Part shown: positions 30,768 through 35,620 of the stretch, in pieces | Position numbering within the stretch: the stretch's first letter is position 1 | Layout of the letters: every line of letters starts with the position of its first letter | Assembly: GCF_000724625.1 (NCBI RefSeq) | Contig: NZ_CP007139.1 | Coordinates: forward strand, 1,116,001-1,180,000 | Direction: 5' to 3' | From: Fimbriimonas ginsengisoli Gsoil 348 | GTDB lineage: Bacteria; Armatimonadota; Fimbriimonadia; Fimbriimonadales; Fimbriimonadaceae | Length of the DNA stretch: 64,000 bases | Program-made: the position numbers and the translations under genes | Notes under the pieces: generated by a model | Databases searched by the model: none | What the model was told of the DNA's origin: nothing | The model's input: only the letters and a program-made list of their open reading frames with translations

Positions 30768-31145
30768 CTAATTTCCAAGTTTATCGCTTATTTCTCTGGA
30801 AACCTGGTCGACGATATCCAATAATCTCGGAAAGACCGGTATAAATTGACTGATTTCTCCAAAGAATAGCTCAACAGACACAACGATAGTATCGTTTTTC
30901 CAGGTAGCTTTGGCAGCCTTGTACTGACGATTAACGTCGTTGCAGGTCACCATAGCGGCGGTCTGATCACAACCTTCGGCATCTAGGAACTTCGCCAGCC
31001 GAAAATACTCCGGGTCCTTTTCAGCGACGAAAAGGATATACGTCATGCCCTCATATTTGAAGACGATGTCACCATCCTCGTCAGTCTTGGGGCGGTAGCC
31101 TTCGTCCAAGAGATACGTGGTGTAGATCTCTCCCTTGGTCATCAC
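30768..31145 (-). CDS. YbjN / secretion-chaperone-like protein, third gene of CFI-box operon
   Basis: 125 residues. Alternating strands and helices (IYTTYLLDEGYRPKTDEDGD, then IVFKYEGMTYILFVAEKDPE, YFRLAKF) with a final helix LPRLLDIVDQVSREIS match the YbjN/CesT-like chaperone fold. Members bind and hold other proteins; none is an enzyme. The start is GTG 31145 or ATG 31142, each overlapping the previous stop. The low GC is shared with its two neighbours. Confidence 0.6.
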   Translation of the reverse strand: MMTKGEIYTTYLLDEGYRPKTDEDGDIVFKYEGMTYILFVAEKDPEYFRLAKFLDAEGCDQTAAMVTCNDVNRQYKAAKATWKNDTIVVSVELFFGEISQFIPVFPRLLDIVDQVSREISDKLGN

Positions 31146-31390
31146 AAGTACACCTTATACTGACCTTGAAAACCTCCGCGCTTTACAGCAACCTGGCCAT
31201 TTACGTAGAGCGTGCATTCTGCCCCGGCGTCAGTGTCGACCTCAAAGTGCGCCTCACCGTTCGAATTCGTTCGCTGATCAGGCGTGAACCCACCTGCCAT
31301 GAACTGATGGATTTCGAATGATACTCGGACGTCCTTCGCAGGCCGACCGTCACTTCCTAATATAAGAACCGCAATATATCGCTTAGCCAT
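31142..31390 (-). CDS. Small Ig-like domain protein, second gene of CFI-box operon
   Basis: About 82 residues starting MAKRYIAVLILGSDGRPAKD, a single beta-sandwich resembling carboxypeptidase-regulatory or bacterial Ig-like domains (VRVSFEIHQF; GEAHFEVDTDAGAECTLYVN). There is no signal peptide, so it is probably cytosolic. ATG 31390 overlaps the CFI-box gene by eight bases, and its stop overlaps the next gene, so the three are translated together. Its job is not recognised; a partner-binding subunit is likely. Confidence 0.6.
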   Translation of the reverse strand: MAKRYIAVLILGSDGRPAKDVRVSFEIHQFMAGGFTPDQRTNSNGEAHFEVDTDAGAECTLYVNGQVAVKRGGFQGQYKVYL

Positions 31391-32207
31391 GGGTTTGTTT
31401 TTGCTCCTCGATGTTGTGAAAGCCCGCAATCTTCAAAGCTTTAGTTAAGGGAATTAGGACTGAATACTTGACCAACTTTCCCAATCTAGGGTGCCTAACG
31501 ACTACCTCTGCTGCTCCCGGGCCGGTCGCGTAGTACCACTTTACGAACAACTTTCCCATCGCGTGTCTGAGCAAACAACGATCCCGCCAATTTCTCAAAA
31601 CGAGAACGTCAGGGTGATCATACGAGCCATAACAGGCTGTCGCAATAAAGCAGGGGCCCTTCTTTGGTGGATTTTCTAGCTCTGCCAAAAATTTCCTGGC
31701 GGCAATATATGTCTCTTCGAGATGCTGAAAATTGGCGGTAATATAACGTAGTTCGGTGATTGCTTCTGGTTTACGCCCAATTGCCTGCAGGATATCTGCC
31801 TTAGTCAGCCGTGCGTAGGCATTGTCGGAGATTGATAACGCTTCGTCCAGAATTTTCAAAGCCTTGTTTGCGTTGTTTTTCTCCTGAGCTCTCGCAATTC
31901 CTGCCGCAGCCAAACCGCCCACTAGCGATTCCGATCCCTGTGCCATTTTGCGCATCAGAACCGAGGAGCCGAAGACCCGTAGGGCTCGAAAAACGTGATA
32001 GTTGGATTCGTGAAAGAGAACATCAGAATCTGAAGAATCCAGGGATTTGGCCGTCGTTATTTGCTGAAGGTAGACCTTGAGCTTCTGATCGATTTGCTTT
32101 TCGACCTTAGAGTCCTTTTTCGCATCTCCGGTCATTTGGGCGAAGAGGACATCTAAATCACTATCGTATTCTTCCAGAAGTCTCGTTTCCGCTGTTGGTA
32201 ATGGCAT
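31383..32207 (-). CDS. CFI-box-CTERM protein with helical repeat N terminus
   Basis: 274 residues. Residues about 1-180 are helical, with TPR-like repeats (NANKALKILDEALSISDNAY; LTKADILQAIGRKPEAITEL). Then comes CFIATACYGSYDHPDVLVLR and the family extension (RDRCLLRHAMGKLFVKWYYA; VVRHPRLGKLVKYSVLIPL). That is the CFI-box C-terminal domain, of unknown function, found in diverse bacteria. Its hydrophobic final helices may contact membrane. The lower GC and AT-rich codon choice differ from neighbours. First gene of a three-gene operon next to a tRNA; see findings. Confidence 0.75.
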   Translation of the reverse strand: MPLPTAETRLLEEYDSDLDVLFAQMTGDAKKDSKVEKQIDQKLKVYLQQITTAKSLDSSDSDVLFHESNYHVFRALRVFGSSVLMRKMAQGSESLVGGLAAAGIARAQEKNNANKALKILDEALSISDNAYARLTKADILQAIGRKPEAITELRYITANFQHLEETYIAARKFLAELENPPKKGPCFIATACYGSYDHPDVLVLRNWRDRCLLRHAMGKLFVKWYYATGPGAAEVVVRHPRLGKLVKYSVLIPLTKALKIAGFHNIEEQKQTHG

Positions 32208-32662: not shown

Positions 32663-32765
32663 AAAATGGCGTCGCGCACGTCGCATGCGGCCAACGATCG
32701 GACACAGAGTATACCTGTCTTCAGAAATCCCGGTCGATCGTTCCTGTGATTAGCGCGACATGGTC

Positions 32766-32771
32766 TACTAT
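32766..32771 (+). promoter_or_regulatory. Predicted -10 box of a leaderless transcript (antitoxin)
   Basis: TACTAT, six bases, then ATG at 32778. This spacing argues for the 32778 start instead of ATG 32760 or 32772. Confidence 0.55.
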
Positions 32772-32777
32772 ATGACT

Positions 32778-33038
32778 ATGATCCAGGCAAACGTAGCTCA
32801 AGTGAAGGCCCGGCTGTCTCACTTTTTGCGGCTCGCGAAAGCTGGCGAGAAGGTGGTGATTTGCGAGCGAAATCGACCGATAGCGGAACTCACAGCCGTT
32901 CGTCCTCCGGTTGATAGGGCGTTGCGCGAGTCCGCCTTTGGAATGTATGCCGGACAGGTCGACGAGAAGGAGTTAGAGGACGCGTTACGACCGATGACCG
33001 ATCGAGAGGCGGATGAATTTGTCCAGGGCGGACTTTGA
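32778..33038 (+). CDS. Phd/YefM-type antitoxin
   Basis: About 86 residues. MIQANVAQVKARLSHFLRLA then KAGEKVVICERNRPIAELTA is the Phd/YefM N-terminal domain (N-V-x-x-x-K-x-x-L-S-x-L). The acidic C-terminal helix (YAGQVDEKELEDALRPMTDR) would wrap the toxin. The stop overlaps the toxin start (TTGA). Confidence 0.9.
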   Translation: MIQANVAQVKARLSHFLRLAKAGEKVVICERNRPIAELTAVRPPVDRALRESAFGMYAGQVDEKELEDALRPMTDREADEFVQGGL

Positions 33039-33418
33039 AAATCCTCCTGGACACAAGTGTCCTCTTACGGCTTTCGCTCGCAGAACAGACGCTCAGCAAG
33101 GAGTTGAAGGAGATATTGCTCGGGACGGAAAACTTGATGGTTACGGCTATTTCGCGCGCCGAGATCAACATCAAAGTCTCCGTCGGCAAACTCCATCTCC
33201 CGGTCCCCGAGTCGGTGTTCTGGGATGAGCTTATCTCGCGGCTTCAGGCCACTCAACTATCGTTTGACACTGCTCACGCCGCGCGGTTGGCGAGCTTGCC
33301 TTTATATCACCGCGACCCTTTCGACCGAATGATCTTGGCTCAATGCCTGGTCGAGGACCTAGTTTTAGCGACGACCGACATCATGCTTGGAAGTTACGGC
33401 GTGACCGTGGTCAATTAG
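33035..33418 (+). CDS. PIN-domain toxin, Phd-associated
   Basis: 127 residues. ILLDTSVLLRLSLAEQTLSK (Asp first), an ISRAEINIKVSVGKLHLP glutamate, and LYHRDPFDRMILAQCLVEDL (R-D-P-F-D-R-x-x-x-A-Q is the signature of the Sll0205-type PIN subgroup that partners Phd antitoxins), then LATTDIMLGSYGV. Probably an RNase. TTG start at 33035 overlaps the antitoxin stop. Confidence 0.9.
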   Translation: MKILLDTSVLLRLSLAEQTLSKELKEILLGTENLMVTAISRAEINIKVSVGKLHLPVPESVFWDELISRLQATQLSFDTAHAARLASLPLYHRDPFDRMILAQCLVEDLVLATTDIMLGSYGVTVVN

Positions 33419-33573: not shown

Positions 33574-35343
33574 ATGAATTACCAGAAGATGACTCCGGCG
33601 CTTAACGCCCTGATGCATGACTTTGAGCACCCCCGCGTCGGAGGATTATCGGCTTCGCTCCAGTCGTTCGGTATCGTGCAGACGGATGCGACGGCGGATC
33701 CGAGTGTCGTGGTGAAGGTGCGGATCGACGACAAGCCAGAGACGGTCGCGCGCCTTGCCAAGATAGGAGTGACCGTCAACGAGCCCACTCGGAGCGAAGC
33801 CGGACGCAAGAACGGATACGTGGCCCGCACCGCATACCTTCCGATCAGCGCTCTTGGGAGTCTTTCCGACGACCCTTCGGTGCGGAGAATCAGTCCGGGC
33901 CGGTATCTGAACCTCTTGTTGGATACGGCAGCGGTCGCCGTAAACCTTCCCGCCTACAAAGCCGCGACCGGCGACACCGGAAAGGGAGTCGTCGTCGGGA
34001 TCGTGGACAGCGGCTTGGATTGCTCGCATCCCGCATTCGCAGGGCGCGTTCTCCGTGTTTGGGATCAAACGCTGGCCGGCGCAGGCGTCCCTGGTCGAAG
34101 CTACGGAACCGAGTTCGTGGCTCCGACCTTTACCGGCACGACCGATACCCACGGACACGGGACGCACGTCGCTGGAATCGCCGCGGGAAACGACGCGACT
34201 TATCAGGGGGTCGCCCATGAAGCGAACATCGTCTTTGTTAAGACCACGATGATGGACGCCCACATCGCAGACGGAGTCGAATACATCTTCGATGTCGCCG
34301 CCAGCCTCGGATTGCCTGCCGTCGTGAATCTGAGCCTCGGGGGTCACCACGACCCGCACGATGGGACGGACGACCTCTCGCATCGGATCGACCTTGTCTC
34401 AGGACCCCAACGCATCGTGGTGTGCGCGGCCGGCAACGAAGGGTCCCAGGATATTCATGCGCACACGAGTATCGCCCCCTCGGGCGCCGACACGATCAAT
34501 TTCGGCGTCGCTAATCCGGCAATGATCCCCGTTCTCAACGGGTGGTATCCGGGAACGTTCGAACTCGAAATCGCGGTGGAATCGCCCTCGGGGCTGATGA
34601 CGCCGTTTCAAGGCGTCATCCTCGCCGGTTCGCCGTCGAGGATTTATCCGCTCACGGATGGGACGATAAGAATGACGACGAACGGCCCCGACCCGGTCAG
34701 CGGAGACCACAACTTCTTCGTCGAGGTGCTCGGCGCGAGCCCGCTCGGTCAAGTCGCCGCCGGCGTGTGGAAGCTCCACGTGCGACGAGGACCCACGGCG
34801 GGGCCGGCGGGTGACCTTCACATTTGGAGCATGGAGGGGCACAACATCGGCCAAGTGCCTTTCGTATCGGGGAGCGGCGTTCCAGGACACAAGGTCGGTT
34901 CGCCGGGAGCCTCTGGTCAAGCGGTTACCGTCGCTTGCCTCTGTACAAAGAACAGTTGGACGGACGCCACGCCCGCGCCTCAATCGATTCCCTCTCTCAC
35001 CGTGGGCGGCCTCGCGTTTTTCAGCAGCGATGGACCGCTTCGCAACGGCGCTCAAAAGCCCGATTTCACTGCGCCCGGGGCGGTGATCGCCTCCGCCATG
35101 TCTTCCGCTTCCTTGCCGCTACCGAAAAACCGGCTGCTCGGCGGGTTCACCATCATGATGGGAACCAGCATGGCGGCCCCGTTTGTGACCGGCCTGGTTG
35201 CGCTCCTCTTGCAGAAGGATCCCACGCTCGACCCGGCCGGGGTGAAGGCGAAGCTTAAGGCTCGCTCCGCAATCCCCGGCGGAGCTCCCGGCGCTTGGGA
35301 CGCTCACTGGGGCTATGGGATAATCGACATGGCGACACCCTAG
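33574..35343 (+). CDS. Leaderless subtilisin-like serine protease (S8) with N-terminal prodomain
   Basis: 589 residues. Residues 1-115 form an N-terminal domain (MNYQKMTPALNALMHDFEHP ... VVVKVRIDDKPETVARLAKI ... ISPGRYLNLL) with the I9 propeptide pattern. The S8 triad follows: Asp145 in GIVDSGLDCSHPAFAG, His195 in HGHGTHVAGIAAGN and Ser532 in GTSMAAPFVTGLVALLL. A beta-sandwich P/Homo B-like domain is inserted at about 320-430 (TFELEIAVESPSG; AAGVWKLHVRRGPT). There is no signal peptide or Tat motif, so it may act in the cytosol or leave by a non-classical route. A short gene 14 bases on encodes a homologue of its own N-terminal domain. Confidence 0.93.
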   Translation: MNYQKMTPALNALMHDFEHPRVGGLSASLQSFGIVQTDATADPSVVVKVRIDDKPETVARLAKIGVTVNEPTRSEAGRKNGYVARTAYLPISALGSLSDDPSVRRISPGRYLNLLLDTAAVAVNLPAYKAATGDTGKGVVVGIVDSGLDCSHPAFAGRVLRVWDQTLAGAGVPGRSYGTEFVAPTFTGTTDTHGHGTHVAGIAAGNDATYQGVAHEANIVFVKTTMMDAHIADGVEYIFDVAASLGLPAVVNLSLGGHHDPHDGTDDLSHRIDLVSGPQRIVVCAAGNEGSQDIHAHTSIAPSGADTINFGVANPAMIPVLNGWYPGTFELEIAVESPSGLMTPFQGVILAGSPSRIYPLTDGTIRMTTNGPDPVSGDHNFFVEVLGASPLGQVAAGVWKLHVRRGPTAGPAGDLHIWSMEGHNIGQVPFVSGSGVPGHKVGSPGASGQAVTVACLCTKNSWTDATPAPQSIPSLTVGGLAFFSSDGPLRNGAQKPDFTAPGAVIASAMSSASLPLPKNRLLGGFTIMMGTSMAAPFVTGLVALLLQKDPTLDPAGVKAKLKARSAIPGGAPGAWDAHWGYGIIDMATP

Positions 35344-35356
35344 CGTCGAAGGATGA

Positions 35357-35620
35357 ATGAACTACCGAAAGTTGGATGCCGCGCTCGCTAGCGTGGTGGA
35401 CGATCTTTCCTATCCGGTCGAGGTTTCGGTTAGGACGCAACGCGCCCCCACTCAAACCGAGGCGACGGCATTGGCTCGCCTCGGCGTGGAGTTACCGAGC
35501 TTGGAACGGCCCGTCTTCACGGCAACCTTAAACCGGAAAGGGATCGGCTTTCTGTCGGAAGAGGACTGGGTCTTGAAAATTTCCCTTTGCCAGCCGCTGC
35601 AATACCTCAAGCCCGCCTAG
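35357..35620 (+). CDS. Free-standing copy of the subtilase N-terminal (prodomain-like) region
   Basis: 87 residues. MNYRKLDAALASVVDDLSYP matches MNYQKMTPALNALMHDFEHP at the protease N terminus, and VEVSVRTQRAPTQTEATALA then RLGVELPS matches VVVKVRIDDKPETVARLAKI then GVTVNEP, ending ISLCQPLQYLKPA against ISPGRYLNLLL. Between these it lacks a 20-25 residue stretch. There is no catalytic domain. It starts 13 bases after the protease stop with GAAGGA upstream. Most likely an inhibitor or folding chaperone for the protease, by analogy with I9 propeptide-like inhibitors; it could also be a decaying duplicate. Confidence 0.75.
   Translation: MNYRKLDAALASVVDDLSYPVEVSVRTQRAPTQTEATALARLGVELPSLERPVFTATLNRKGIGFLSEEDWVLKISLCQPLQYLKPA

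What the first reader, a model, noticed from the sequence alone, without database searches (positions are those of the whole stretch)
33574..35620. Leaderless subtilase followed by a free-standing copy of its own N-terminal domain
Seen: a 589-residue S8 protease with intact triad (Asp145, His195, Ser532) and no signal peptide is followed 13 bases later by an 87-residue gene whose product aligns end to end with the protease's first 115 residues, minus an internal stretch of 20-25 residues. Known: subtilase I9 propeptides fold the enzyme, inhibit it, and exist as separate inhibitors in some organisms. Inference: an intracellular protease kept silent by a dedicated prodomain-like inhibitor, comparable to a toxin-antitoxin or conditional-protease module. 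A decaying duplication is the alternative.
Basis: partly seen in the sequence, partly recalled or inferred. Interest (0 to 1): 0.8.

Follow-up and report, generated by a model that had tools for sequence, protein, structure and literature searches.

The report
Subtilase paired with free-standing prodomain copy
A bacterial protease that appears to stay inside the cell is encoded next to a small gene that makes a separate version of the protease's own built-in inhibitor, and the same pairing occurs in distant bacteria, which suggests a deliberate lock-and-key control unit rather than gene debris.

Summary
In detail: a 589-aa S8 protease with an intact triad and no leader (33574-35343), then 13 nt later an 87-aa gene (35357-35620) whose product matches the protease's N-terminal domain. 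The decisive new fact is a second copy of the pair in another phylum. An Embleya (Actinomycetota) plasmid encodes a 47%-identical protease followed by a 39%-identical small protein. The two small proteins group together against the two protease N-termini (bootstrap 96), so the duplication is old and the copy was kept; it is not decaying. Rhizobial and Sphingobium plasmids carry looser versions (S8, then an 84-92-aa gene), and the small gene there is under purifying selection in most comparisons. Profile-profile comparison ties all these small proteins to subtilase prodomains (95.7%, controls at most 0.6%). The protease is Csp-like, with an inserted jellyroll-type region. Best reading: a trans-acting propeptide-like inhibitor, and perhaps folding helper, of a cytosolic Csp-like subtilase. 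Analogues are SUB1-ProM, POIA1 and the Aeromonas ASP-ORF2 operon. Inhibition, the complex and any toxin-antitoxin or defence role are not shown. The small protein does not reach Pfam I9, and its single-sequence model is poor.

The parts
33574..35343 (+). Leaderless S8 subtilase, 589 aa, Csp-like architecture
   Evidence: PF00082 4e-35; best PDB sequence relative C. perfringens CspB 4i0w; Foldseek best hits CspA/CspB/CspC
33574..33924 (+). [quoted passage not shown]
   Evidence: AF2 strands/helices E46-52 H55-63 E84-90 H91-97, pLDDT about 75 at 50-70, lower elsewhere; alignment with other prodomains
34006..34008 (+). catalytic Asp145 codon
   Evidence: invariant column
34156..34158 (+). catalytic His195 codon
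   Evidence: invariant column
34471..34893 (+). approximate insert between oxyanion Asn288 and Ser532, all-beta in the model, corresponding to the Csp jellyroll domain
   Evidence: CspB aligns through it; beta strands 295-419 in the model; PMC3567191
35167..35169 (+). catalytic Ser532 codon (GTSMA)
   Evidence: invariant column
35348..35353 (+). Shine-Dalgarno-like GAAGGA in the 13-nt spacer, 3 nt before the ATG of the small gene
   Evidence: sequence
35357..35620 (+). 87-aa stand-alone prodomain-like protein
   Evidence: ortholog in Embleya; z = 7.0 to own prodomain; profile-profile 95-96% to prodomains; codon-position GC 0.59/0.43/0.73 like its neighbours

Best explanation
The two genes form a translationally close operon for an intracellular Csp-like subtilase and a dedicated, trans-acting copy of its prodomain. 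The protease folds on, cleaves and may lose its own N-terminal prodomain. The 87-aa protein keeps the same fold and ends at about the residue where the prodomain would be cut, so it can dock on the same surface with its C-terminal tail in the active-site cleft. It would hold the mature enzyme silent in the cytosol, and may also help it fold, until the inhibitor is removed or outcompeted. Shown: homology, conserved gene order across two phyla, ancient duplication, intact catalytic residues, Csp-like architecture. Inferred: binding, inhibition, autoprocessing, cytosolic location, the trigger and the biological purpose.
For: The pair recurs in Embleya sp. NBC_00896, protease 47% identical and small protein 37-39%. 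Four-sequence tree puts small with small and prodomain with prodomain, UFBoot 96. Each small protein still resembles its own protease's prodomain more than the other's (z 7.0 vs 2.7; 6.1 vs 2.3), as expected if both dock on the same catalytic domain. S8 plus an 84-92-aa prodomain-like gene also occurs in Rhizobium sp. TH2, R. etli Mim1, R. leguminosarum WSM1325, A. leguminum AT13 and Sphingobium; small-gene dN/dS 0.13-0.32 in all but the closest pair. Profile of the small proteins hits subtilase N-termini (L016 residues 78-139, E 9e-6) with little else among all ORFs of the loci held; hhalign 95.7%, controls at most 0.6%. In CspB the prodomain works in trans as chaperone and inhibitor, through its last residues (PMC3567191). 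Stand-alone propeptide-like inhibitors are proven elsewhere (PMC6993865).
Against: No biochemical data. No Pfam I9 match for P0002 even at E = 10. Single-sequence AF2 model of P0002 is poor (pLDDT 48.5, no significant fold match). The protease has its own prodomain, so a second copy is not obviously needed. The module is absent from the genus and family sampled, and several related subtilases lack it.
Confidence: 0.66

Rival explanations
1. External folding chaperone. The small protein is needed to fold the protease, like ORF2 of Aeromonas ASP, and its inhibition is only transient; it is not a standing lock.
For: ASP/ORF2 has the same gene order (chaperone just downstream of the protease), and the ORF2 C-terminus sits at the catalytic site and inhibits, IC50 84 nM (PMC5638518). 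The CspB prodomain restores folding in trans.
Against: ASP is described as propeptide-deficient, whereas this protease has its own prodomain, which should serve folding. The two roles are not exclusive.
Confidence: 0.17
2. A prodomain-fold protein with another job: an adaptor, sensor or decoy, or a regulator of a different subtilase of the genome, kept next to the protease as part of a conflict (defence or toxin-antitoxin-like) island.
For: Rhizobial pairs sit beside PLD genes, in one case also a CHAT gene. A PIN toxin/antitoxin pair is immediately upstream in the window. The own genome has several other S8 genes.
Against: Apart from its Embleya ortholog, its best match is the adjacent protease's own prodomain, and the partnership persists without other shared neighbours in Embleya.
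Confidence: 0.11
3. Decaying or neutral tandem duplication of the 5' end of the protease gene.
For: The small protein lacks about 25 residues relative to the protease N-terminus, and no ortholog was found in the genus.
Against: The duplicate is shared with another phylum, predates that split, has coding-type codon-position composition and is under purifying selection in related loci.
Confidence: 0.04

Closest known systems
Plasmodium SUB1-ProM, with POIA1, yeast PBI2, Arabidopsis SPI-1 and TgMIC5 (stand-alone propeptide-like inhibitors; PMC6993865)
   Same: Small separate gene resembling a subtilisin propeptide; SUB1-ProM also lies beside subtilase genes and inhibits its cognate enzyme
   Different: All are eukaryotic. 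SUB1-ProM carries a secretory signal; the window protein has no visible leader. Inhibition is proven there, not here. The window protein has traceable sequence homology to its neighbour's prodomain, whereas the I9 mimics lack significant similarity
Aeromonas sobria ASP-ORF2 operon (PMC5638518)
   Same: Bacterial S8 protease with a downstream gene whose product acts as external chaperone and inhibitor through its C-terminus
   Different: ASP is secreted, kexin-like and propeptide-deficient; the window protease appears leaderless, is Csp-like and has a prodomain
Clostridial CspB/CspA/CspC germination (pseudo)proteases (PMC3567191; PDB 4i0w, 9pr8, 9pr9, 6mw4)
   Same: Subtilase with an inserted jellyroll-type domain and a prodomain; CspB prodomain inhibits and works in trans
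   Different: I found no separate prodomain gene described there; the window protein scores far below the Csp family cut-offs
Trypco1/Trypco2, trypsin-co-occurring small domains of conflict systems (PMC7159879)
   Same: Small uncharacterised gene frequently beside a peptidase gene
   Different: Partner is a trypsin-like peptidase; no homology was tested

Membership tests
Peptidase family S8 (subtilase) | Asp/His/Ser triad in the S8 motifs and PF00082 score above cut-off | tested here: met
   122 bits vs 21.8 cut-off; D145, H195, S532 invariant
Csp-type subtilases | jellyroll-type insert between the oxyanion Asn and the catalytic Ser | tested here: met
   CspB aligns 134-547; Foldseek top 11 are Csp structures, best E 2e-29; the model is of medium confidence (pLDDT 66.8)
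Csp-type subtilases | NCBIfam Csp family cut-offs (CspBA, CspC) | tested here: not met
   91.6 bits vs 1250; 54.1 vs 675
Csp-type subtilases | prodomain cleaved but retained on the enzyme | not testable with these tools
   needs purified protein
Peptidase inhibitor family I9 (PF05922) | profile score above cut-off | tested here: not met
   no hit for P0002 at E up to 10; one relative 0.038 only
[quoted passage not shown]
   P0002 model pLDDT 48.5, order H-E-H-E-E, insignificant hits include the CspB prodomain chain 4i0w_A at E 2.3; the homologous protease prodomain shows the expected order
Peptidase inhibitor family I9 (PF05922) | inhibits a subtilisin-type protease | not testable with these tools
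   needs an assay
Homolog of subtilase prodomains (any) | significant profile-profile similarity to prodomains of subtilases | tested here: met
   95.7%, E 9e-9; controls 0.1-0.5%
ASP-ORF2 type operon | protease lacks its own propeptide | tested here: not met
   N-terminal domain present and homologous to prodomains
IetAS/IteS anti-phage system | S8 protein above the family cut-off | tested here: not met
   29.3 bits vs 900; PADLOC IetS match partial, 439-548
IetAS/IteS anti-phage system | adjacent IetA ATPase | not tested
   not searched for directly; the immediate neighbours identified are PIN/antitoxin and a GH-like gene
Type II toxin-antitoxin | protease toxic alone, small protein neutralises it | not testable with these tools
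   needs expression test

The most novel reading that the evidence does not exclude
Leaderless Csp-like subtilases with a separately encoded prodomain are a widespread, mobile bacterial conditional-protease module, used in conflict with phages or other elements, in which loss of the free inhibitor releases a cytosolic protease that acts on the cell or invader.
Probability: 0.22. Interest if true: 0.8.

Novelty: new variant of a known kind. Interest (0 to 1): 0.55.

Why it matters
Stand-alone subtilisin propeptide inhibitors with proven function are known from eukaryotes, and the bacterial precedent found (ASP-ORF2) is a secreted enzyme without a propeptide. A conserved bacterial pair in which the protease keeps its own prodomain and a second copy is supplied in trans would show how a prodomain becomes an independent regulator, and would give a small system for testing when such a copy acts as chaperone or as lock. 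It also offers a candidate control mechanism for cytosolic subtilases found beside CHAT, PLD and MBL genes on plasmids.

Tried and rejected
Decaying duplication: rejected. I9 membership by Pfam: not met. Genome-contig scans with the window and Embleya proteases found nothing, so synteny rests on plasmid records. Viral-contig scans gave one full-length relative without a small gene (L042) and many ordinary subtilases; a scan with the small-protein alignment could not be run. Weak phylum hits for the small protein were read: L009, L010 and L141 are unrelated genes; L142 was not read. The P0002 fold model is too poor to use. The search tools for whole genomes reach only the window's own phylum, so prevalence across bacteria was not measured. 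Literature searches found no description of this bacterial pair, but only open-licence papers are held.

Full report
Observation. The window holds a 589-codon gene at 33574-35343 and, 13 nt after its stop, an 87-codon gene at 35357-35620. The first encodes an S8 subtilase (PF00082, 4e-35) with Asp145, His195, Asn288 and Ser532 in invariant columns. No leader is visible at its N-terminus, by inspection only. The spacer carries GAAGGA just before the second ATG, so the pair is probably one transcript; transcription was not tested. Codon-position GC of the small gene (0.59/0.43/0.73) is like that of the two genes around it.

What the protease is. Its nearest solved relative by sequence is Clostridium CspB. 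A 15-sequence AlphaFold model (pLDDT 66.8) finds CspA, CspB and CspC as its best structural matches. The extra stretch between Asn288 and Ser532 is all-beta in the model and corresponds to the jellyroll insert that characterises CspB (PMC3567191). It is not a member of the curated Csp families (91.6 bits against a cut-off of 1250). Residues about 45-104 of the N-terminal domain follow the strand-helix-strand-strand-helix-strand order of subtilisin prodomains, and the domain aligns with the N-terminal domains of relatives.

The small protein is a prodomain homolog. In this genome alone the similarity to the protease N-terminus is faint: BLASTP E 6e-5 for one comparison, z = 7.0 against shuffles. 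Three further results settle it. First, Embleya sp. NBC_00896 carries the same two genes in the same order: protease 45-47% identical over the full length and a 93-aa protein 37-39% identical over the full length, 108 nt downstream. Second, a tree of the two small proteins and the two protease N-termini joins small with small and N-terminus with N-terminus, bootstrap 96. The duplication is thus older than the split of the two loci, and both copies were kept. Third, profile-profile alignment of eight small proteins against ten prodomains gives 95.7% (E 9e-9), while three control segments of the same proteases give at most 0.5%; with the window and Embleya small proteins alone it is 96.2% against prodomains and at most 0.6% against controls. 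Interestingly, each small protein is closer to its own protease's prodomain (z 7.0 and 6.1) than to the other protease's prodomain (z 2.7 and 2.3). With only two loci this is suggestive of co-adaptation or gene conversion, not proof.

How widespread. Among plasmid records, S8 genes of the same broad group are followed by an 84-92-aa prodomain-like gene in Rhizobium sp. TH2, R. etli Mim1, R. leguminosarum WSM1325, Agrobacterium leguminum AT13 and Sphingobium fuliginis KK22. Leisingera M658 has an orphan small gene beside insertion elements. A profile made only of small proteins finds the N-terminus of an R. leguminosarum S8 protein (residues 78-139, E 9e-6) and, weakly, of other S8 proteins, with a single other weak match among all ORFs of the loci held. 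dN/dS of the small gene is 0.13-0.32 across most rhizobial pairs and 0.47 (11 substitutions) in one close pair; the window-Embleya value (0.57) is uninterpretable because synonymous sites are near saturation. Other relatives lack the small gene: the R. leguminosarum UPM791, S. meliloti and Rhizobium sp. CC1099 loci, where an MBL gene follows, S. medicae, Acaryochloris, Paenibacillus, the viral contig L042, and the leader-bearing subtilases of the window's own phylum. Neither gene has an ortholog in the genus or family sampled, so the pair is an accessory acquisition in this species.

Mechanism. Prodomains of CspB fold the enzyme and block the active site with their last residues, and do so when supplied in trans (PMC3567191). 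Separate propeptide-like proteins inhibit subtilases in malaria parasites, fungi, yeast and plants (PMC6993865). Aeromonas ASP needs ORF2, encoded just downstream, whose C-terminus sits at the catalytic site (PMC5638518). The window's small protein ends close to where the protease's own prodomain should be cut (alignment), so it has the shape of a processed prodomain with a free tail. I therefore take it as a cognate trans-acting inhibitor, with chaperoning as a possible second role. This step is inferred. A model of the complex could not be made, the single-sequence model of the small protein is unreliable, and nothing here measures inhibition.

Context and limits. Beside the pair in the window lie a Phd/PIN toxin-antitoxin pair and a TY-Chap/TPR cassette; three rhizobial pairs are followed by PLD genes, and in TH2 a CHAT gene lies upstream. 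This is compatible with a conflict role but proves none. PADLOC matches to subtilase and IetS models are partial. The database reach outside plasmids and the window's phylum was limited, so the real distribution is unknown.

Verdict. Observation confirmed; the neutral-duplication alternative is rejected; the inhibitor reading is the best supported but untested. New variant of a known kind.

Noticed in passing
window 32760-33418, +: Phd/YefM-like antitoxin (0.00029, below cut-off) and PIN-domain toxin (1.7e-13) directly upstream of the protease.
   Followed up: partly
window 30768-32207, -: Three-gene cassette: TY-Chap1 protein, small Ig-like protein, and TPR protein with a CFIATACYGS motif; possible conflict-type cassette.
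   Followed up: no
L015, L033, L034 (rhizobial plasmids): S8 and prodomain-like gene are followed by a PLD gene; in TH2 a CHAT-domain gene lies upstream.
   Followed up: partly
L018 1471-7272 (Sinorhizobium meliloti plasmid): Related S8 gene without small gene sits between a XendoU RNase gene and an MBL-fold gene; the same S8-MBL order recurs in R. leguminosarum UPM791 and Rhizobium sp. CC1099.
   Followed up: partly
L014 5088-5579, -: A peptidase inhibitor I36-like protein gene lies next to the Embleya pair (PF03995).
   Followed up: no
L042 4317-6961 (viral contig): Csp-like S8 gene on a phage-like contig, followed by an ORF that reads like a SIR2-type protein (by eye).
   Followed up: no
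L035 5001-5267 (Leisingera plasmid): Orphan prodomain-like gene beside IS elements with no S8 gene in place.
   Followed up: yes
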